A stretch of DNA of 64,000 nt from a virus: positions 1 to 64,000 of the IMG/VR virus record IMGVR_UViG_3300034198_015460; one strand, written 5' to 3'. Under the pieces are notes generated by a model. It did not search any database and was not told the origin of the DNA. It saw only the letters and a list, made by a program, of their open reading frames with translations. The stretch's first letter is position 1. The number at the start of each line of letters is the position of its first letter. Position numbers and translations under genes: made by a program. Below are positions 19,146 through 36,088 of the stretch, in pieces.

Positions 19146-19757
19146 TCATTGCACAAGTTCAATAGTATTTAGTTCTTTTTGTTTTCTAAACTCTTCCCAT
19201 CTTTTTTTAGATGCAGCAGAAACAGCCAATTTTCTTTTGTTATTGGGATCCGACCATTGTTCTTTCATACGTTTAGAATTTTCTTGTTTCCATTCAGCTG
19301 TATGTGGAGCCTTTTTAATTCCTGTAAGAGCAGCTTTATGTTCTTCGGTTAGAGCTTTACCTTTTTTAGCAGCAGAAATCGCTGATCCTCGGCTTGGTGG
19401 TGCTGGAACGCTTTTACCTTTTTTAGAGAATGATATTTTTTGACCAATAGTTTTTACGGATTCTGGGTAAGCATGCCAAGCTGTTGTATTTGATTTATTT
19501 AAGTTATAATAACGTAATTTTATTTCTTCTGGCTTTATCATGTCTAAATAACGCTGTTCTTCTTCGTACATATTAATTCTAGATAAATTTGTTTTTAATA
19601 TACGTCTTTTAAAATCTTCTGACCTAATTCTCCACGCTTGTTTCATCCAAGAAGAACTACATATATATCCATCTTCAACAGTTCCCCAATGACAACCGAT
19701 ATAATATCTTTTATGTTTACGATCAAACCAAAGATAAACAAATCCGTATTTTTCCAT
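19146..19757 (-). CDS. GIY-YIG homing endonuclease downstream of gene 23
   Basis: About 203 residues from the ATG at 19757 (GGAGG 6 nt upstream). The N-terminus KYGFVYLWFDRKHKRYYIG is a GIY-YIG core variant. HWGTVEDGYICSS follows, an Arg-rich FKRRIL and Glu-bearing YEEEQRYLDMI, then NUMOD3-like repeats with Lys-rich linkers (SFSKKGKS, AAKKGKALTEEHKAA). It is a close paralogue of the gene between 13 and 14. It is flanked by two terminators, so read-through from gene 23 is limited. It could be mobile between T4-like genomes. Confidence 0.88.
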   Translation of the reverse strand: MEKYGFVYLWFDRKHKRYYIGCHWGTVEDGYICSSSWMKQAWRIRSEDFKRRILKTNLSRINMYEEEQRYLDMIKPEEIKLRYYNLNKSNTTAWHAYPESVKTIGQKISFSKKGKSVPAPPSRGSAISAAKKGKALTEEHKAALTGIKKAPHTAEWKQENSKRMKEQWSDPNNKRKLAVSAASKKRWEEFRKQKELNTIELVQ

Positions 19758-21249: not shown

Positions 21250-22500
21250 CTAAACTTTAACGGTTCTTGAAATTGCTTGTAGATAACGATTTACTTGTGG
21301 ATCGACATTCTCAACATTATTGTTGATTTGGCCTTCAAAAGTTTCTTCGTTAATATTTGAAGAGCGTGTTGTTGATTCGCCCTTGAAATAATTTTCTTTT
21401 ACAATTTTCAATTTTTTCTCGTATGTTTCAAGATTGCCATCAAAATCAATGCCTTCAACAAGAGCTAAAAACTTCTCTTTTTGTGTTAGTGCAAGATCAG
21501 CTGACACGGACTCAAATACATCTCGCATTTGAGCTTCGTATACAACAGATTTTAGCTCATTATTTTCAGTAATTGATTCGTCAAGTTTTTGTTCTAATTC
21601 TTCAACTTTTGAAGCCATGGCTTCTAGAACATCAACTTTTGTTTGTGGAACATTGATATAATGTTCTGTAAACAAACCTTTTAGGCCATCAATAAACTCT
21701 TCCATGAGTTCGTTACGTAGAGTAGATTCGATGGCGACTTCGTTTTCTTTCATCCAGTTTTCAACAACATAGTCTAGATAAGCATCTAGTTTTGTTGTCA
21801 ATTGTTCTGTTAGATCGGAAACTTGTTCTTGCAATTCTTGTTCAAATTGTTCTTGAAGAGAAGCAACTTCTAAAGTTATACGAGCATTTACTGCTGCTTC
21901 AAAAATTGTTGAAGCTTTTTCTTTGAAGTCTTCAGAAAGTTCTTGGCCGTTGAACATTTCTTCAACATCTTCTTTGACATTAATTTTTGGCATTGGCATT
22001 TTTGTTTTTGGACCTTTAGAAGCAACAGCAGCAGAAGCATTCATATCAATTGAAGAAGCGTTTTGTGCTGATTTATCAGTAGCTCCTGGCATTTTATTGG
22101 GGCCAAATTGAGCAATAGTTGCACGGAAATGATTGAGGTCAGTTGTATTCATTGAAGCCATCATATTAACAACATTTTTCATCGTTGAAGCACGAGATTC
22201 AGCAGGAATTTTTACATCAGCAGTTTTGTGTGCTTTGATGCTGGAGGCAGCAATGGTTTCTTCTTCCATTTTCTTTTTCTTCATGGAACTTTTACCACCT
22301 TCTTCCTCTTCTTCCTCTTCACCTTTTCCTTTTCTATCATCGTCTTCAGTATCGCCATCATCGTCATCATCTTCTTTTCCGTCATCGTCATCGTCTTTCT
22401 TTGAAGATTCTTCCTCTTCTTCTTCACGGCGACGACGAGCTTCTTGTAGAGAAATCTTGAAAATATCTTCAAGTTCTGATTGTTCTTTTCTTTCAGTCAT
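21250..22500 (-). CDS. 22: prohead core scaffold gp22
   Basis: A 416-residue scaffold protein, longer than T4 gp22 (269). The C-terminal two thirds are helical and acidic, with coiled-coil repeats (LQEQFEQELQEQVSDLTEQL, KVEELEQKLDESITENNEL), as in gp22. The extra N-terminal ~100 residues are an extreme run of Glu, Asp and Lys clusters, a low-complexity insertion. It lies between 21 and 23 as in T4 and is expected to be degraded by gp21. A late promoter lies directly upstream. Confidence 0.92.
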   Translation of the reverse strand: MTERKEQSELEDIFKISLQEARRRREEEEEESSKKDDDDDGKEDDDDDGDTEDDDRKGKGEEEEEEEGGKSSMKKKKMEEETIAASSIKAHKTADVKIPAESRASTMKNVVNMMASMNTTDLNHFRATIAQFGPNKMPGATDKSAQNASSIDMNASAAVASKGPKTKMPMPKINVKEDVEEMFNGQELSEDFKEKASTIFEAAVNARITLEVASLQEQFEQELQEQVSDLTEQLTTKLDAYLDYVVENWMKENEVAIESTLRNELMEEFIDGLKGLFTEHYINVPQTKVDVLEAMASKVEELEQKLDESITENNELKSVVYEAQMRDVFESVSADLALTQKEKFLALVEGIDFDGNLETYEKKLKIVKENYFKGESTTRSSNINEETFEGQINNNVENVDPQVNRYLQAISRTVKV

Positions 22501-22543: not shown

Positions 22544-23209
22544 TTAAAATTTTACTGTAAGAGAAGCAATATAATTCTCAAACAACGCAAGACTGTTTTC
22601 CTCTAATTGACGAGTACTCATTTTTCTCATGCCTTTTTTCATATTATCAAGTTTCTCTTCATGCCATGTATGTTTGACTGGATCATAAATCCACTCTACG
22701 TTTTCCATAATTCCTTGAACAAAAGCTCCTGGAGCGGATGGATCAGCAACAATATCAGCAGCAGTTGCTAAACGAAAATCGTCTTTGACCATCATTCCTC
22801 TTGCAGTTTCTTGTAATGTTCCAAGACCTCTTGAAGAAACACCTAAATTTGCACCAGATTCTAGAAGACCTCTAGCAATATTGCCCATTGGTGTTTCTGT
22901 AATTACTGCTTTACCAACAAAAACATTTCCATCTCTTTTTAATTCTTTGATGATATGTGAAACACGATCAAGATTAATTTGTGGACCTGATGGATGGCCC
23001 AATTCACCATAAGCTCTGTTTTCTTTGATAACTTCTTTTACATATCTATTAACTTCTGATTCCAAAACAGAAATGGGATAAACTCTACCATTTTTGTTTT
23101 TTTGTTCAGCAACAAGAAATGTTCCTTGAATATAATGTTTTTTATTACCGTTTTCTGTTGCTTCGGTAATATACTCTACTGATTCTATTTCTTCTCTAAT
23201 AAGTTTCAT
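22544..23209 (-). CDS. 21: prohead protease gp21
   Basis: A 221-residue serine protease of the T4 gp21 family (212). The catalytic His lies in YGELGHPSG (H72) and the catalytic Ser in GVSSRGLG (about 125-126). A conserved NGRVYP precedes them. An N-terminal YITEA (I-x-E site) is a likely self-cleavage point. It cuts scaffold, capsid and internal proteins after (I/L)xE during head maturation. It follows the 80-residue gene after 1 nt. Confidence 0.95.
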   Translation of the reverse strand: MKLIREEIESVEYITEATENGNKKHYIQGTFLVAEQKNKNGRVYPISVLESEVNRYVKEVIKENRAYGELGHPSGPQINLDRVSHIIKELKRDGNVFVGKAVITETPMGNIARGLLESGANLGVSSRGLGTLQETARGMMVKDDFRLATAADIVADPSAPGAFVQGIMENVEWIYDPVKHTWHEEKLDNMKKGMRKMSTRQLEENSLALFENYIASLTVKF

Positions 23210-29229: not shown

Positions 29230-30411
29230 TTAAAAGGACTCTCTTACGGAAAACATCCAATTATCAGGCACAAATTTTTCATATTCATCGTCAAAATCTT
29301 CCCTTCCATCAAAAACAAATCCAAATGGAGCGAGATCTTGCTCTATATCTTCTTCAGTCTTGTCTCTCAGAGACATCAAAGTATTAATGTTTGTATAATC
29401 TTTAAAGTATTGTTGGTCTGAAAGCCAAGCAAACAAAACCAAACACATCACTAGGTCATCGTGTTTTTGTGGTTCCGCTTCGTATGAATTTCCTTTTTTA
29501 GAAAACGTTGAAAATTCGTTAATTGTATTAAAATCGTTAATAACTAATTGATTTTGTTCAATTAATAATTTAAGAATAGAACAACCAATTGTTTTGACAA
29601 CCTTAGTTGTTCTAATACCTTTATCAATTTGTGTCGAGCTTACTCCAAAACCACTAGTAATTCTTTTACCACTTCTGCCGGCATTTTCAGTAAAGAGCAC
29701 ATTTTCATAGCCAAAATCGTAGTGAAGGCTATGAGATACTTGTTCGCCTATGTCGTTTACCTCAACTAGAACAGAAGCATTGTTGTAGCTTTTGGCGGTT
29801 CTATGAATAATACTTGCATAATCAATTGGTGATACTGAGTTATTACGGAATACACATACCTGCTGATATGGCATAGAAGTAACATCTAAAAGCTGAAAAG
29901 CCGAATAATCAAGTCCTTTACCTCTTGATACGTCACAAACCATCATGTATACTCTGTCTTTGACGGGTGGAAAATATTGAATCATGCCATCTTTTTCCAT
30001 AATAGGATTTTGATGGACCATTTCTTTCAATTTCCAGCCAGCAATAAGAGTACCAGAACTACCAAGAAATTCACAATTGTGGTTAACAATATCATTACCA
30101 TAATAACAATATTCTTTTTTGACTTCCAGAGGATCGTAAAAAAATTGTTTTTCGTTGACAAATTCAAAACTTAAAATTTCACGATTGCCTTGTTTGGTAA
30201 CAATGAAATCAGATGAATTGATTTCAGCCGCTGTTTTGAATCCGTTTATTGTTAATAATAAATGCTCGGGTGTACAAATTATTTCTTTGAAATCTTCGAG
30301 TATAATACGAACATTTTCTTGTCTTTTAATCTTTCGTATGCCATCAAAATCACTCCATCCGTGAGGAGTTAAGATTTCATATTGACTATTTTTTCGAACA
30401 GTGATTTCCAT
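29230..30411 (-). CDS. 17: split terminase large subunit: C-intein + nuclease half (gp17-C)
   Basis: 393 residues. The first 112 are the C-terminal part of a split intein. It has block-B-type ICTPEHLLL (TxxH) and ends GNDIVNHN before Cys+1 (30073-30075). The remaining 281 residues are the terminase nuclease half, starting CEFLGSSGTLI, with acidic sites in MMVCDVSRGKG, LVEVNDIG and KHDDLVMCL. Protein trans-splicing with gp17-N should restore ...EQEYN-CEFLGSSG..., the expected continuous sequence. The start ATG lies inside the 3' end of the endonuclease gene and has only a weak ribosome site. Confidence 0.92.
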   Translation of the reverse strand: MEITVRKNSQYEILTPHGWSDFDGIRKIKRQENVRIILEDFKEIICTPEHLLLTINGFKTAAEINSSDFIVTKQGNREILSFEFVNEKQFFYDPLEVKKEYCYYGNDIVNHNCEFLGSSGTLIAGWKLKEMVHQNPIMEKDGMIQYFPPVKDRVYMMVCDVSRGKGLDYSAFQLLDVTSMPYQQVCVFRNNSVSPIDYASIIHRTAKSYNNASVLVEVNDIGEQVSHSLHYDFGYENVLFTENAGRSGKRITSGFGVSSTQIDKGIRTTKVVKTIGCSILKLLIEQNQLVINDFNTINEFSTFSKKGNSYEAEPQKHDDLVMCLVLFAWLSDQQYFKDYTNINTLMSLRDKTEEDIEQDLAPFGFVFDGREDFDDEYEKFVPDNWMFSVRESF

Positions 30412-31022
30412 ACTATGTTATTGCCCTTGATTATTTTTTTTAAATTTGGTATAGACATATTAAATTTTTCTGCATATTGTATACAGAAAGCCGAATCATA
30501 ATCTATAGTTTTCCCGTTTTTTCTTTTGAAATCTAAATTTAAAATTGGTTTGGAAACATACAAATTTAATATATTTTCTATACACTGTTCGTTAAATTTT
30601 TTACTATGAACCTTTCCTTTTCTTTTTTGTGACCACATGATTTTTGTTTCTTGGCTATGATGTTTATTTAACATGGGGGGAATATAATTTTCTTTTTTAG
30701 AATAGTGATTTAATCTCATTTTTTGCTTAGATTCGTCCGAAAATTTAAATCCATGTGTTGTGAATTTTTCCGTATAATTGTTGCCAGAACCATCGGGTGT
30801 TTCGTTCAATCCGTTGTTGTAAGTATCATACAGTGATATAAAAAATTTTTCAGCACAACTGATCATTTCGTGATCTTCGGAATAAAATAGAACTTCGTAT
30901 GAAAAATTATAGTCAAGAAACCTTTTAGTTTTTTTATGACTAGACATTCTGTTTTTTATATTTTTGGCTTTACCAATATATTTTTTTCCGTCTTCTCTGG
31001 TTATACAGTAAACACAATACAT
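30369..31022 (-). CDS. GIY-YIG endonuclease in the gene 17 break
   Basis: 217 residues. The N-terminal MYCVYCITREDGKKYIGKAKN is a clear GIY-YIG domain, with Arg in NIKNRMSSHKK and Glu in CAEKFFISLYD. NUMOD3-like repeats (FKFSDESKQKMRLNH, HHSQETKIMWSQKRKG) and a C-terminal helix-turn-helix-like DNA-binding tail follow. It sits between the two gene 17 halves, overlaps the start of the second by 43 nt and has its own late promoter. It probably spreads the fractured allele by cutting intact gene 17. Confidence 0.9.
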   Translation of the reverse strand: MYCVYCITREDGKKYIGKAKNIKNRMSSHKKTKRFLDYNFSYEVLFYSEDHEMISCAEKFFISLYDTYNNGLNETPDGSGNNYTEKFTTHGFKFSDESKQKMRLNHYSKKENYIPPMLNKHHSQETKIMWSQKRKGKVHSKKFNEQCIENILNLYVSKPILNLDFKRKNGKTIDYDSAFCIQYAEKFNMSIPNLKKIIKGNNIVWKSLFEKIVNMKS

Positions 31023-31046
31023 TTTATTTTCCTAGAAATTTACATT

Positions 31047-31054
31047 TATTTATA
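31047..31054 (-). promoter_or_regulatory. T4-type late promoter of inserted endonuclease
   Basis: TATAAATA about 25 nt upstream of the endonuclease ATG, in the short gap after gp17-N. It would also drive gp17-C, giving the second terminase half late expression. Confidence 0.7.
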
Positions 31055-31058
31055 TATT

Positions 31059-31970
31059 CTAGAAATTCTCATTATTCATAAGATCATATGCTTCTTCTAT
31101 GGATAAATTCAATATTTCACCCGTATTTTTGTTTCTTAGGGTTATTTTTGCATTTCCATAAACACAATTATATTCCTGTTCAAACTTCTCAAGGTCAAAA
31201 TTCATTGCAGCAAGAGTGTTCTGTTTCCAGTTATCATCTCTGCCAGGAACATCTTGCCATCTAACCATAATATTGTTATATCCATTTCTATTTTCTTTGG
31301 AATTTACCCAAATACTATAGAAGTGGTTTAGACCATTAGGAGTTGATACAAGAATAATTTTAGTTTCCGAACCAGAAGAAATGGTAGGATACACTGATGT
31401 GAAAAAATCGTCCCAGTTTTCAATAAATGCAGCTTCGTCAATGAATAGAAGGTTAACAGAGAAACCACGAATGTTATTTGAAGAAGTCGCCGTAGCAATA
31501 ACACGAGATTGGTTTTCTAGAACGAATGAACCTTTGTTCCATTCAACAACACCTTGCTGAAGCCATTTTGGAAGATGCTGGTATGCTAACTGAATACGAC
31601 TTAGAATTTCTCTAGCGGTGTCTCCTTTATTGGCCAAAAGAGCCACTGTTTTTTCTGGATGAAATATGATATACCATAAAATAAAAGCACAAGTTGTTGT
31701 TGATTTGCCTGCCTGACGAGCAGTTGTGATAATATTAAATCTACCATTAGCAAAAGCTCGTAACATATCTTTTTGATATGGATATAGTTCGAAATTAACT
31801 AGACCTTTATCAATATTGATGATTTTCATATAAGTTTCAGTAAAATAAATTACATCCTGCGAACACTTAATATATTCTTGAACAAGATCAGGGGTCCAAT
31901 CTATAGATTGATTGGCTCTTTTTAGATTTATATTACCGTTATAACCACCAAGATTATTGAATTGATCCAT
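31059..31970 (-). CDS. 17: split terminase large subunit: ATPase half + N-intein (gp17-N)
   Basis: About 303 residues from the ATG at 31970. The ATPase half has FNIITTARQAGKSTTT (Walker A), LLFIDEAAFI (Walker B) and LVSTPNGLNHF (coupling motif). It runs to EFEQEYN, where a 35-residue N-intein begins with Cys1 (31164-31166): CVYGNAKITL, then GEILNLSIEEA. It ends at a stop after NNENF. Such a short N-intein is the atypical split known from AceL-TerL-type terminase inteins. Motor ATPase for DNA packaging once spliced. Confidence 0.93.
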   Translation of the reverse strand: MDQFNNLGGYNGNINLKRANQSIDWTPDLVQEYIKCSQDVIYFTETYMKIINIDKGLVNFELYPYQKDMLRAFANGRFNIITTARQAGKSTTTCAFILWYIIFHPEKTVALLANKGDTAREILSRIQLAYQHLPKWLQQGVVEWNKGSFVLENQSRVIATATSSNNIRGFSVNLLFIDEAAFIENWDDFFTSVYPTISSGSETKIILVSTPNGLNHFYSIWVNSKENRNGYNNIMVRWQDVPGRDDNWKQNTLAAMNFDLEKFEQEYNCVYGNAKITLRNKNTGEILNLSIEEAYDLMNNENF

Positions 31971-32367
31971 CACCTTCTCTAATATTCTTTATCATTTTTT
32001 GCAATTCTGCTGTAGAACCAACAAAAAGATTGTTGTTGATAGTTCTTGCGCCATTTATTGGTTGATCAATAGCCTTAATTTCTCTGACCTTACTTTGTAA
32101 ATCCATCAAATCTCTATTGGCCTGGAGCATAGTTTCCATCAATTTTGACAATACTTCGTATGCTCTCGGATGTTGAGAACTATCGGCAATCAACGCTAAT
32201 TTATCCATAGCATCTTTGCCATTTTCAATTAAATCATGAATATTGGCTCGTGCCTGTTCAAAATCTTTTTTTGCACTATCGTCCAAAGCGGTTTCAATAA
32301 TACCATTGACTGTTTTAGTGATATTACTTAATTCTGGAAGATTTGGTTCGTCTTCTTCTTCATTCAT
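31954..32367 (-). CDS. 16: terminase small subunit gp16
   Basis: A 137-residue, acidic and helical protein (T4 gp16 164), located between 15 and 17 as in T4. The central helical part (NGKDAMDKLALIADSSQHPR, then EVLSKLMETMLQANRDLMDL) matches the gp16 oligomerisation region and the tail FVGSTAELQKMI the end of the family. Ring-forming DNA recognition subunit of the packaging motor. The start overlaps gene 15 (TAATG) and its end overlaps gp17-N. Confidence 0.9.
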   Translation of the reverse strand: MNEEEDEPNLPELSNITKTVNGIIETALDDSAKKDFEQARANIHDLIENGKDAMDKLALIADSSQHPRAYEVLSKLMETMLQANRDLMDLQSKVREIKAIDQPINGARTINNNLFVGSTAELQKMIKNIREGDGSIQ

Positions 32368-33242: not shown

Positions 33243-33965
33243 TTAAATGTTCCCTTCTGAGAAAGGATCACGAACTGTAAAGTCAACGAACTGATCTGAT
33301 TCAACTTGGAATTCATCGCTATCATCCATAGCAACCAAATCACCAACACCTTTTCCTTCAAGAATTAAATAATTTCCATCTTCGTCTGTCAAATAATCAC
33401 CGTTTTCATCTTTAATTCCCCAAGTAAGTATGTTTGTATCAAATTTCTTTTGAATAGAATCAATTTCTGGTATGCCAGTATTAAATGTTTCATTAGAATA
33501 TTCAAACAATTCTGTTGTCATTTCCCAGGTCTGAAGAGCGCCTAGTTGATAGAACATCTCATATTTGTTCACAAATTTAATTTGAAAACATTTTTTATTT
33601 AAAGGAAAATATATTAAATCGCCTTCGTTTGGTCTTACTTGTGTTGTAAAGTTTCCAACCTCTTCATTGAATATTCTTTGAGCAACAGACCAAATAACTT
33701 GATCTCTGATTTCAAGACCAAACTTAGACATGAAATTACCATCACCCTGAAACCCATCAAAGCTTTTGATATACATTTCAATAGGATAGGCGTTTTCATA
33801 TGACGATTGATCATCGGCTCCATAGATATCATCGTAATTGTTTAGTTTACGAGGAATATAGAAAACGTCATGACCGTAAATACGTATTGCCTCGATAACT
33901 AGGTTTTCGAGGAGAAGCTGTTCCTGTGACGATTGAAAATTATTGAAGAAAAAATTTGTGGCGAT
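33243..33965 (-). CDS. 14: neck protein gp14 with apparent AUC start
   Basis: 240 residues if initiated at ATC (33963-33965). The first ATG, at 33776, would remove 63 residues that clearly belong to the family: ATNFFFNNFQSSQ, NLVIEAIRIYGHDVFYIPR, compare the T4 AESIQMRGVECYYVPR. No ATG, GTG or TTG occurs upstream in frame before a stop. AGGAGG lies 5 nt before the ATC, which is 1 nt after the stop of the preceding gene. Later EGDLIYFPLNKKCFQI and YEMFYQLGA match T4 gp14. It joins head and tail. Confidence 0.88.
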   Translation of the reverse strand: MATNFFFNNFQSSQEQLLLENLVIEAIRIYGHDVFYIPRKLNNYDDIYGADDQSSYENAYPIEMYIKSFDGFQGDGNFMSKFGLEIRDQVIWSVAQRIFNEEVGNFTTQVRPNEGDLIYFPLNKKCFQIKFVNKYEMFYQLGALQTWEMTTELFEYSNETFNTGIPEIDSIQKKFDTNILTWGIKDENGDYLTDEDGNYLILEGKGVGDLVAMDDSDEFQVESDQFVDFTVRDPFSEGNI

Positions 33966-33966
33966 G

Positions 33967-34566
33967 TTATCCTCCTATATCTTTTTGAGGAGGATTATAT
34001 CCGGTCACTATTTTCATTCTTCCTATTTTTTGCTGTTCTGGATCTTTTGAGCCATACGGTATATGAGTAATCATATCAGAAGTTAATGGTTGAGCGAAAC
34101 CATTAGAGTGTAAACCATGCACTCTCATTTCTGGATCACTCATCATTCTATTTAAAGATTTTTGCATGCCTTCGGAATTTTTAGTCCATTCTATAGACGC
34201 ATTATGAGTTCTTGAAATAGATTTAATAACATCATTCATTCTAACAGGAGAACTTTTTCTGCCCTGCGTGGTTGGAAATTGATATGTTATTGATTTATCA
34301 GGATTATTTATTTGACCAGCAAATCTAACAGTATGATGTATTTTCTTATCTTCTGGATTATATGTGAAATAAGAAGCTCCGCTTCCTGGGGAAGAAGAAT
34401 GGTATAAATGTAAACCGCCTACTTCTCCAATTTTGTTAGCGTTTTTATCAAATTTATTTGGATCGTCATAAGTTATAGGTTTTGTGTCGCTGACAATTGG
34501 ATCTCTTTTTGTTTGAGATATATCGGCGGACCAAGCTTCTTTTATGTATTTTTTAAATGTCAGCAT
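33967..34566 (-). CDS. predicted capsid-internal (injected) protein
   Basis: 199 residues beginning MLTFKKYIKEAWSAD, very like the capsid-targeting sequence of T4 internal proteins (MKTYQEFIAEA). An I-x-E cleavage site (IKE|A) would be cut by gp21. The body is basic and unrecognised: GLHLYHSSSPGSGASYFTYN, IHHTVRFAGQI, MRVHGLHSNGFAQP. It lies with a homing endonuclease between genes 13 and 14, which are adjacent in T4. The product is probably packaged in the head and ejected with DNA; activity unknown. Confidence 0.7.
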   Translation of the reverse strand: MLTFKKYIKEAWSADISQTKRDPIVSDTKPITYDDPNKFDKNANKIGEVGGLHLYHSSSPGSGASYFTYNPEDKKIHHTVRFAGQINNPDKSITYQFPTTQGRKSSPVRMNDVIKSISRTHNASIEWTKNSEGMQKSLNRMMSDPEMRVHGLHSNGFAQPLTSDMITHIPYGSKDPEQQKIGRMKIVTGYNPPQKDIGG

Positions 34567-35296
34567 TTTTTAATCTACATTTCTCGTTGTGGTATCTATA
34601 AACATTGCCTTTATTTCCCCAAAAATCACAATAAACACATTTTATTTTAGTATTATTTATAAGAGAAAATGCTCCAGCGTTTTTGATTTTTTGTTTGTGT
34701 TCTTCTGTTAATGGTGCTCGTTTTATACCTTTAGACGCTGCAATTAATTCACCCGAAATCCATTTTGGATCATCATGCGTTGTATGAAAAATATTGCCAT
34801 CAGAATCTTTAACTGTAATTTTACCTTTATTTCTATTATTTTCTAACATAGTATTTCTACGTTTAATTTTAGTTTCAATATTAGACGACTTTGTATCTCT
34901 TGTTTTTAATCCTTCAATATATTTTTCACGAATTTCTGGTCGCTGCATTGCTTCTTTAGTACGAATAGAGATTTTTTCTTTTCTAGATAATAAGTTACTT
35001 TCATCTAGCCATGTATCATTTACATTTTTTGAAAGATTATAATAACGAATTTTAAGTTCTTCATCTTTCACTAAAGAAAGCCAATATTTTTCACGTTCAT
35101 ATAATTCTTTACGGTTGATATAAACACGTTCTAAAATTCTACGTTTAAAATCTTTAGGGCGGTGCTTATGTGCTTGTCGCATCCACGGAGATGAACAAAT
35201 ATACCCATCATTTTCTGTTCCCCAGTGCATACCAATATAATATCTTTTTTGTTTACGATCTAACCAGATATAAACAAAACCATATTTTTCTTGCAT
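34553..35296 (-). CDS. GIY-YIG homing endonuclease between genes 13 and 14
   Basis: 247 residues. The N-terminus KYGFVYIWLDRKQKRYYIG and HWGTENDGYICSS are nearly the same as in the endonuclease downstream of gene 23, so the two are paralogues. FKRRILE and ELYEREKYWL carry the catalytic Arg and Glu. The middle is Lys-rich with NUMOD-like stretches; a C-terminal zinc finger (IKCVYCDFWGNKG, RYHNEKC) resembles that of the endonuclease at 11850. Its end overlaps the capsid-internal protein gene by 14 nt. Late promoter upstream. Confidence 0.9.
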   Translation of the reverse strand: MQEKYGFVYIWLDRKQKRYYIGMHWGTENDGYICSSPWMRQAHKHRPKDFKRRILERVYINRKELYEREKYWLSLVKDEELKIRYYNLSKNVNDTWLDESNLLSRKEKISIRTKEAMQRPEIREKYIEGLKTRDTKSSNIETKIKRRNTMLENNRNKGKITVKDSDGNIFHTTHDDPKWISGELIAASKGIKRAPLTEEHKQKIKNAGAFSLINNTKIKCVYCDFWGNKGNVYRYHNEKCRLKNADI

Positions 35297-35326
35297 TTAA
35301 ATACTCCTTTGAAGTTATCTCTAGAG

Positions 35327-35334
35327 TATTTATA
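35327..35334 (-). promoter_or_regulatory. T4-type late promoter
   Basis: TATAAATA about 31 nt upstream of the endonuclease ATG. It can also serve the internal protein and gene 14 downstream, and so may compensate for the insertion. Confidence 0.7.
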
Positions 35335-35347
35335 TAAAGTATATATT

Positions 35348-36088
35348 TCAGCCGATCATATCGCTGACGGGCAACGAATAAGACGTAATCATATCTCTTT
35401 CTAATTCTGCACGTTCTTGATTGGCGTCAGCTAAAATTTGCAAACCATTAAACTCGATACCACCAGGAAGTTTCATACCACGAAACTTTGAAAGATTAGC
35501 TCCCCATTGTTGCTTAATTAAACACGTAGCATATCTAAGCAACCAACGATCTCCCCATGCTTTTGTATAAACTTCTGGGTCGACTACTTGATATACTTCT
35601 GCTATTAAATAATTACCAGCGTCAAATTTATTCCAATCCATATCAAGATAAAGTTTATTGATGTGGCGATTGTATCTAAGTGGTTGTTTACCAACCAACA
35701 TCATTTCAAGAAACTGAATATGTTGTAGAGCCATATAATATGGCACCATAGAAACAGAGGTAAGAGTGTATAAATCATTCAAAGCAATTTGATAACGAAT
35801 ATTGAATAGATTGTTTGTATTCAAAGCCTGACCGACCTCAAATACATTAACAGCGCCGATCACGTTATCTGGAAGAGTAATGTATTTGTTTGTTATATCG
35901 GTTTGAGTGACCTGATGCTTATAGTATATTTTCTCAGCGCCCTCAAAATGATAATCCCAAAAATAACGAAGAGCTTCGTCGACGCGATCATCAACTTGAT
36001 CATCATCGACGTTAATTTCAATTACAGGTTTGCCTAAACGACGTAGGCAGTACTCTTTGAATTCGCTCTTTGTGGTAGGTATTGCCAA
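35348..36088 (-). CDS. 13: neck protein gp13
   Basis: A 246-residue protein (T4 gp13 309) with TTG start (36086-36088), 1 nt after the stop of a small membrane gene. Typical features: MAIPTTKSEFKEYCLRRLG start, DDDQVDDRVDEALRYFWDYH acidic segment, and YGLGWGDR-like TKAWGDRWLLRYATCLIKQQWG with KLPGGIEFNG. These match gp13 of T4-like phages. It forms the neck ring with gp14. The non-AUG start is supported by AAGG and by the conserved N-terminus. Confidence 0.93.
   Translation of the reverse strand: MAIPTTKSEFKEYCLRRLGKPVIEINVDDDQVDDRVDEALRYFWDYHFEGAEKIYYKHQVTQTDITNKYITLPDNVIGAVNVFEVGQALNTNNLFNIRYQIALNDLYTLTSVSMVPYYMALQHIQFLEMMLVGKQPLRYNRHINKLYLDMDWNKFDAGNYLIAEVYQVVDPEVYTKAWGDRWLLRYATCLIKQQWGANLSKFRGMKLPGGIEFNGLQILADANQERAELERDMITSYSLPVSDMIG

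What the first reader, a model, noticed from the sequence alone, without database searches (positions are those of the whole stretch)
33967..35296. Cargo island between genes 13 and 14: homing endonuclease plus a predicted injected head protein
T4 genes 13 and 14 are adjacent, but here 1.4 kb separates them. The first inserted gene is a GIY-YIG endonuclease. The second starts MLTFKKYIKEA, matching the capsid-targeting sequence of T4 internal proteins with an IxE protease site. So a virion-packaged effector seems to travel with a homing endonuclease. Its body matches no family I know, leaving room for an anti-defence or host-takeover activity.
Basis: partly seen in the sequence, partly recalled or inferred. 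Interest (0 to 1): 0.62.

Follow-up and report, generated by a model that had tools for sequence, protein, structure and literature searches.

The report
Phage cargo slot for injected proteins
Between two neck genes of an uncultured T4-like phage sits a gene for a protein that carries the phage's "pack me into the head" tag and is predicted to fold like an acetyltransferase; relatives keep other tagged proteins or DNA-cutting genes, or nothing, in the same slot, which makes it a swap-in site for proteins that are probably injected into the bacterium.

Summary
Between gp13 and gp14 the window carries 1.38 kb with a GIY-YIG homing endonuclease gene and a 199-aa gene beginning MLTFKKYIKE|A. All orthologues found keep this leader, and two unrelated ADP-ribosyltransferase-like families at the same junction carry it too; none of the 21 GIY-YIG clusters there does. 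A DNA pattern for the leader picks out exactly ipII, ipIII and 61.1 in T4. Among 173 distinct gp13-gp14 junctions from related viral contigs, 120 are empty and 52 occupied by endonucleases, this family, ART-like genes or combinations. The two genes are separable: near-identical effectors occur with no endonuclease, one upstream, or one downstream. Comparison with gp14 shows the effector is exchanged between phages and under purifying selection. No Pfam or PHROG family matches, but two AlphaFold models have a GNAT topology and Foldseek returns mainly acetyltransferases (PDB, weak) or NAT-like phage proteins (E down to 6e-9). The acetyl-CoA loop is altered, so catalysis is open. Best reading: a head-packaged, injected GNAT-fold effector in an exchangeable cargo slot, a new variant of the T4 internal-protein theme. 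Packaging could not be tested. Side finding: gp14 repeatedly has AUC/AUU/AUA start codons after endonuclease insertion.

The parts
33967..34566 (-). 199-aa cargo protein with T4-type leader; predicted GNAT-like fold (P0001)
   Evidence: ORF; orthologues; AlphaFold/Foldseek; dN/dS 0.04-0.16 in relatives
34537..34566 (-). leader MLTFKKYIKE, predicted capsid-targeting sequence, with predicted prohead-protease cut after Glu10 (IKE|AWSAD)
   Evidence: matches T4 ipII/ipIII leader pattern; kept by all orthologues
33970..34536 (-). predicted mature protein (residues 11-199); confidently modelled GNAT-like core from about residue 31
34553..35296 (-). free-standing GIY-YIG homing endonuclease, 247 aa, C-terminal Cys/His zinc-finger-like motif
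   Evidence: PHROG 314 E=3e-13; other GIY-YIG-like ORFs at 19146, 11850, 6974 and 30369 in the window (by reading)
35327..35334 (-). TATAAATA late-promoter-like motif of the endonuclease gene
35300..35337 (-). RNA hairpin (AAATACTC...GAGTATTT) that sequesters the endonuclease Shine-Dalgarno; similar hairpin in most related loci with this type of endonuclease
   Evidence: T4 segB/I-TevI precedent in PMC2988022
34654..34661 (-). second TATAAATA motif inside the 3' end of the endonuclease gene, upstream of the effector start; candidate late promoter
   Evidence: motif only
33971..33976 (-). AGGAGG Shine-Dalgarno inside the effector's last codons, placed for gp14
33243..33965 (-). gp14 neck protein; start codon is ATC, no canonical in-frame start upstream
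35348..36088 (-). gp13 neck protein
22544..23209 (-). gp21-like prohead protease (the enzyme expected to cut the leader)
   Evidence: position in the gp20-gp23 head gene order and reading of the ORF; no family search was run
21250..22500 (-). gp22-like scaffold core protein (expected partner of the leader)
   Evidence: position and composition; reading of the ORF

Best explanation
The 199-aa gene encodes an internal head protein of the T4 type. Its first 10 residues direct it into the prohead core. The phage's gp21-like protease then removes them (IKE|A), and the GNAT-fold body stays in the head and is injected with the DNA. There it probably acts at once on a host factor, either by acetylating a protein (host takeover, analogous to the ADP-ribosyltransferase Alt) or by binding and blocking a defence enzyme. 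The gene sits in the gp13-gp14 slot, an exchangeable cargo site among the late structural genes. The adjacent GIY-YIG gene is a separate homing element using the same slot; it can help spread whatever lies next to it by co-conversion but is not needed. Shown here: leader conservation, shared slot, exchange, purifying selection, predicted fold. Inferred: packaging, cleavage, injection, activity, target.
For: Leader kept by all orthologues, which are 31-43% identical to the window protein, and shared with two unrelated ART-like families in the same slot; strict leader pattern in 15 of 17 effector/ART clusters against 0 of 21 GIY-YIG clusters. Leader pattern in 15 related records: 16 hits against 2 for the reversed control, 14 of them ORF starts; in T4 it finds ipII, ipIII and 61.1 only. 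GNAT topology in two models, mean pLDDT 72.7 and 82.5; the PDB lists are led mainly by acetyltransferases, and the viral library gives NAT-named phage proteins, best E 6e-9. Exchange: L091/L099 effectors 79% identical with gp14 43%; L092/L093 gp14 97% with effectors 79%; dS effector/gp14 0.87/0.15 and 0.37/0.96, in opposite directions. dN/dS 0.04-0.16. Injected T4 Ip1-3 inhibit GmrSD enzymes (PMC12373910); ART and GNAT domains are known in phage-delivered effectors (PMC5512222).
Against: No proteomics. The I/L-x-E cleavage site is not strict in every orthologue (for example FSE|A, FCE|A, NAE|A). The GNAT assignment rests on models: no sequence hit, PDB E-values only about 0.002-0.3 and TM-scores about 0.3-0.45. 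The acetyl-CoA loop is RxxSxV rather than Q/RxxGxG/A, and the alpha-4 Trp common in the family is Leu in the window protein, so it may be a non-catalytic scaffold. No host or target known.
Confidence: 0.7

Rival explanations
1. Packaged and injected, but a non-catalytic anti-defence inhibitor that uses a degenerate GNAT scaffold to bind a restriction or other defence enzyme, as T4 Ip1, Ip2 and Ip3 act on GmrSD.
For: Altered acetyl-CoA loop (RxxSxV) and loss of the alpha-4 Trp in the window protein; all three T4 internal proteins tested inhibit GmrSD; patchy distribution and exchange as expected for anti-defence genes.
Against: Several residues (HH in the central strand, R-x-x-S-x-V, T-x-x-S) are invariant across all orthologues, more like an active site than a fast-evolving binding face; low dN/dS; neighbours in the slot are ART-like enzymes.
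Confidence: 0.35
2. The leader is a head-assembly tag but the protein works inside the head or in head maturation (core or DNA-packaging accessory) rather than in the host.
For: Sits among the neck genes; several leader-bearing small ORFs of unknown role exist in these phages.
Against: Absent from the slot in most relatives (120 of 173 junctions empty), replaced by unrelated ART-like genes, horizontally exchanged; enzyme-like fold.
Confidence: 0.12
3. Endonuclease and effector form one mobile unit: the homing endonuclease has acquired a beneficial cargo and the two move together.
For: Both occur together in several lineages; L092 (no endonuclease) and L093 (with one) share 97% identical gp14 but only 79% identical effectors, as co-conversion could give.
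Against: About half of effector sites lack the endonuclease; L095/L098 (none), L096 (upstream) and L097 (a different GIY-YIG downstream) carry 94-98% identical effectors; L091 has the effector upstream of gp13 without one.
Confidence: 0.1
4. The leader resemblance is coincidental and the gene is an ordinary cytoplasmic late protein.
For: Short motif; no direct packaging data.
Against:: strong enrichment over the control, retention by all orthologues, and sharing with unrelated cargo at the same site.
Confidence: 0.06

Closest known systems
T4 internal proteins IPI/Ip1, IPII/Ip2, IPIII/Ip3 (capsid-targeting-sequence proteins)
   Same: Leader of the same form (MKTYQEFIAE|A; ipI MKTFKEF), small, dispensable by distribution, diverse bodies sharing only the leader, at an exchangeable locus
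   Different: Different locus (gp13-gp14, not the e or 57B regions), body unrelated by sequence and predicted GNAT-like; packaging and injection not demonstrated
T4 Alt and ART-PolyVal injected ADP-ribosyltransferases
   Same: Host-modifying enzyme class delivered from the head; ART-like proteins with the same leader occupy the same slot in relatives, and one occurs in isolate Caulobacter phage Cr30
   Different: The window protein is not an ART; it is GNAT-like
GNATs in phage polyvalent proteins and solo capsid-associated GNATs (mycobacteriophage Alice gp113; PMC5512222)
   Same: GNAT fold inferred to be deployed from the virion; a mycobacteriophage Rizal protein is among the weaker Foldseek hits
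   Different: Those were recognised as RimI-like by sequence; this family has no detectable sequence link and an altered CoA loop; here with a T4-type leader
Free-standing GIY-YIG homing endonucleases of T4-type phages (segA-G)
   Same: Intergenic position between essential genes; late promoter in an RBS-sequestering hairpin as in T4 segB and I-TevI
   Different: Site gp13-gp14, not among the T4 seg sites listed in PMC2988022; the cleavage site is unknown
Homing-endonuclease-linked anti-defence loci (SegB segmental amplification, PMC13096335; HEG islands, PMC10448857)
   Same: Endonuclease next to genes that may counter host immunity
   Different: There the link is amplification in cis or in trans, or large flanked islands; here neighbouring, separable occupants of one slot

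Membership tests
T4-type internal (capsid-targeted) proteins | N-terminal capsid-targeting sequence of T4 form | tested here: met
   MLTFKKYIKEA against ipII/ipIII MKTYQEFIAEA; pattern specificity; conserved in orthologues
T4-type internal (capsid-targeted) proteins | gp21-type cleavage motif (I/L-x-E) at the end of the leader | tested here: met
   IKE|A in the window protein; a gp21-like ORF 22544-23209 is present by reading. Orthologues vary at -3 (IIE, VRE, VGE, INE, LNE, but also NAE, FSE, FCE). Cleavage itself not shown
T4-type internal (capsid-targeted) proteins | Present in the mature virion and injected | not testable with these tools
   needs proteomics and an injection assay
GNAT acetyltransferases | GNAT fold (antiparallel beta 1-4, alpha 3, beta 5, alpha 4, beta 6-7) | tested here: inconclusive
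   both models give this order; Foldseek mainly acetyltransferases but weak, stronger to NAT-like viral models
GNAT acetyltransferases | Sequence profile match | tested here: not met
   no convincing Pfam, PHROG or PDB sequence hit
GNAT acetyltransferases | Q/R-x-x-G-x-G/A acetyl-CoA loop | tested here: not met
   RxxSxV at the beta 4-alpha 3 position, all three residues invariant
GIY-YIG homing endonucleases (34553-35296) | GIY-YIG domain and intergenic, variable distribution | tested here: met
   PHROG 314 E=3e-13, YGFVYIW...YYIG; Pfam GIY-YIG only E=0.33; present or absent at the same junction in relatives
T4 Alt-type ADP-ribosyltransferases (considered for the 199-aa protein) | ART fold or motif | tested here: not met
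   no ART match and a GNAT-like model; other cargo in the slot does resemble ART-PolyVal (L016, E=2e-6)

The most novel reading that the evidence does not exclude
The gp13-gp14 junction of a large environmental clade of T4-like phages is a dedicated, endonuclease-associated exchange slot for head-packaged host-modifying enzymes, and this family is a head-injected acetyltransferase of T4-type phages, acting beside leader-tagged ADP-ribosyltransferases and other tagged enzymes in the first minutes of infection.
Probability: 0.35. Interest if true: 0.75.

Novelty: new variant of a known kind. Interest (0 to 1): 0.56.

Why it matters
In T4 the injected internal proteins are few, and all three tested ones block one class of restriction enzyme. 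Here a short leader marks proteins with unrelated bodies, GNAT-like and ADP-ribosyltransferase-like in the slot and others elsewhere in the genomes, across uncultured T4-like phages. That gives a simple sequence handle for finding injected effectors in metagenomes, and one locus where they are swapped, so effector repertoires can be compared between otherwise similar phages.

Tried and rejected
Sequence searches for the body: Pfam, PHROGs and PDB profiles, tblastn against 50,697 phage records and bacterial/archaeal genomes gave nothing convincing; weak hits (mS34, CoV NSP15, RPC4, CarD, Aeromonas phage D3, Klebsiella jumbo phages) were judged chance. 'Endonuclease and effector are one unit' was tested with natural pairs and rejected as obligate. 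'ORF is spurious' rejected by dN/dS 0.04-0.16. 'Leader is chance' rejected by pattern controls. Paper searches on a leader in cyanophages and on AUU/AUC starts in phages gave nothing that bears on this case.

Full report
WHAT IS THERE. The window is bases 1-64000 of an 81,135-base virus record. On the - strand, between gp13 (ending at 35348) and gp14, lie a 247-aa GIY-YIG endonuclease gene (34553-35296) and a 199-aa ORF (33967-34566) that overlaps it by 14 nt. A second contig is identical over 12.6 kb. In most relatives the two neck genes are separated by 2-10 bp, as in Cr30, Mosig and S-T4 they are adjacent, so the 1,382 bp are an insertion.

ENDONUCLEASE. It matches PHROG 314 (homing endonuclease, E=3e-13). 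Upstream is TATAAATA (35327-35334) inside an inverted repeat that pairs with the Shine-Dalgarno; most other loci with this type of endonuclease have a similar RBS-sequestering hairpin. This is the control arrangement described for T4 I-TevI and segB (PMC2988022). This part is ordinary.

LEADER. The ORF begins MLTFKKYIKEAW. T4 ipII and ipIII begin MKTYQEFIAEA and ipI MKTFKEF. A DNA pattern for the leader occurs once in the 81-kb record, at this gene, with none for the reversed pattern. In T4 the slightly wider pattern finds ipII, ipIII and 61.1 only. In 15 related records the pattern finds 16 sites against 2 for the reversed control; 14 are starts of ORFs of 80 aa or more, including nucleotidyltransferase-like and ParB-like proteins by my reading. 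In isolate Cr30 it marks an ART-like ORF (MKTFKQFFNESLTESDDYYYHGT...; weak Pfam matches to PARP, KptA and ART-PolyVal). All orthologues of the window protein keep the leader, with length variants.

THE SLOT. Scans with three gp14 queries and with the effector family gave 173 distinct gp13-gp14 junctions: 120 empty (60 bp or less), 52 occupied, 1 between. At 90% clustering the cargo is 21 GIY-YIG clusters, 12 of the window's effector family, 5 ART-like clusters in two families, and single others including HNH-like and nucleotidyltransferase-like genes. The ART assignment of L016 rests on Pfam ART-PolyVal at E=2e-6, slightly below its curated cut-off; that of L077/L081 on a weak KptA-family match. 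The strict leader pattern is in 15 of 17 effector/ART clusters and 0 of 21 GIY-YIG clusters; the two exceptions have longer variants of the leader by reading (L099, L015). L170's small ORF begins MKKFKELFEA, leader-like by eye. The nucleotidyltransferase-like L230 ORF lacks a clear leader. Junction counts are not corrected for phylogeny, and each scan returns only its best 80 loci.

EXCHANGE AND INDEPENDENCE. L095 and L098 carry the effector alone, L096 has the GIY-YIG gene upstream and L097 another GIY-YIG gene downstream, with 94-98% identical effectors. L091 has the effector upstream of gp13. Effector and gp14 histories disagree in both directions: L091/L099 effectors 79% identical, gp14 43%; L092/L093 gp14 97%, effectors 79%; dS effector/gp14 0.87/0.15 for L092/L093 and 0.37/0.96 for L095/L098. 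dN/dS of the effector is 0.04-0.16, like gp14. So the gene is real, constrained and exchanged. L092/L093 is what endonuclease-driven co-conversion would leave, but other explanations are possible.

FOLD AND MECHANISM. Sequence libraries give nothing convincing. AlphaFold with 8 and 13 orthologues gives mean pLDDT 72.7 and 82.5, with a low-confidence leader and a core in the order of a GNAT fold. In the PDB, acetyltransferases (NatD, RimJ-type, HPA2, HAT1, KKT23) dominate the head of both lists, though E-values are about 0.002-0.3 and TM-scores about 0.3-0.45. In the viral library 16 hits have E of 0.001 or less, some named NAT_SF. In the beta 4-alpha 3 loop, where GNATs carry Q/R-x-x-G-x-G/A, the family has an invariant R-x-x-S-x-V; an invariant His-His lies in the central strand. 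I take the fold as likely (about 0.75) and acetyltransferase activity as open (about 0.4). Injected T4 Ip1-3 each block a GmrSD enzyme (PMC12373910), and ART and GNAT domains are known in proteins delivered by phages (PMC5512222); both host modification and anti-defence are therefore plausible.

GP14 START CODON. Where this slot holds an endonuclease, gp14 often begins with AUC, AUU or AUA directly after AGGAGG-N-TAA or GGGAGG-N-TAA at the end of the preceding gene. This is seen in the window, L018, L034, L045, L087, L228 and L251, with no canonical in-frame start upstream in those checked. Such starts were called at 12 of 40 occupied junctions with a readable start against 3 of 103 empty ones (Fisher P about 1e-5, not corrected for relatedness; the three empty cases may be misplaced). 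This suggests that insertion costs gp14 its ATG and that a strong coupled ribosome site compensates.

NOVELTY. A search of the held papers found the T4 leader, injected Ip proteins and endonuclease-linked anti-defence loci, but no account of this family, of a GNAT-fold internal protein in T4-type phages, or of gp13-gp14 as a cargo slot. Subscription literature is largely missing from that library. I class it as a new variant of the T4 internal-protein theme.

Noticed in passing
33963-33976 (gp14 start); L018, L034, L045, L087, L228, L251: gp14, an essential neck gene in T4, starts with AUC/AUU/AUA right after AGGAGG-N-TAA (or GGGAGG-N-TAA) of the inserted gene in several lineages that carry an endonuclease in the slot; empty sites use mostly ATG or GTG.
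   Followed up: partly
29230-31973: Terminase gene 17 is split into two ORFs whose facing ends look like intein halves (C-part matches Pfam Intein_splicing, E=2e-7, below its curated cut-off), with a GIY-YIG-like gene (30369-31022) between them: a probable split intein with an endonuclease in the break.
   Followed up: partly
L127 (Caulobacter phage Cr30, 28015-28335): An isolate carries a leader-tagged, ART-like ORF annotated hypothetical (MKTFKQFFNESLTESDDYYYHGT...), a ready candidate for virion proteomics.
   Followed up: partly
L102, L103, L105, L106, L108, L109, L111, L114, L117: Leader-tagged ORFs of several unrelated families elsewhere in related phage genomes (nucleotidyltransferase-like, ParB-like, others without a family).
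   Followed up: partly
L018:1467-1934: A 155-aa ORF upstream of gp13 begins MKTFKQYIAEA, almost the T4 leader; no Pfam match.
   Followed up: partly
L093:2519-3487 and L080:331-1254: Genes resembling TctC-type periplasmic solute-binding proteins lie just upstream of gp13 in two relatives; possible auxiliary metabolic genes, by reading only.
   Followed up: no
L094:3981-4994: gp13 matches in two pieces about 295 bp apart, perhaps another insertion or an intron within gp13.
   Followed up: no
window, - strand: All ten TATAAATA motifs of the window lie on the - strand, several upstream of head genes (22532, 21237) and endonuclease genes.
   Followed up: no
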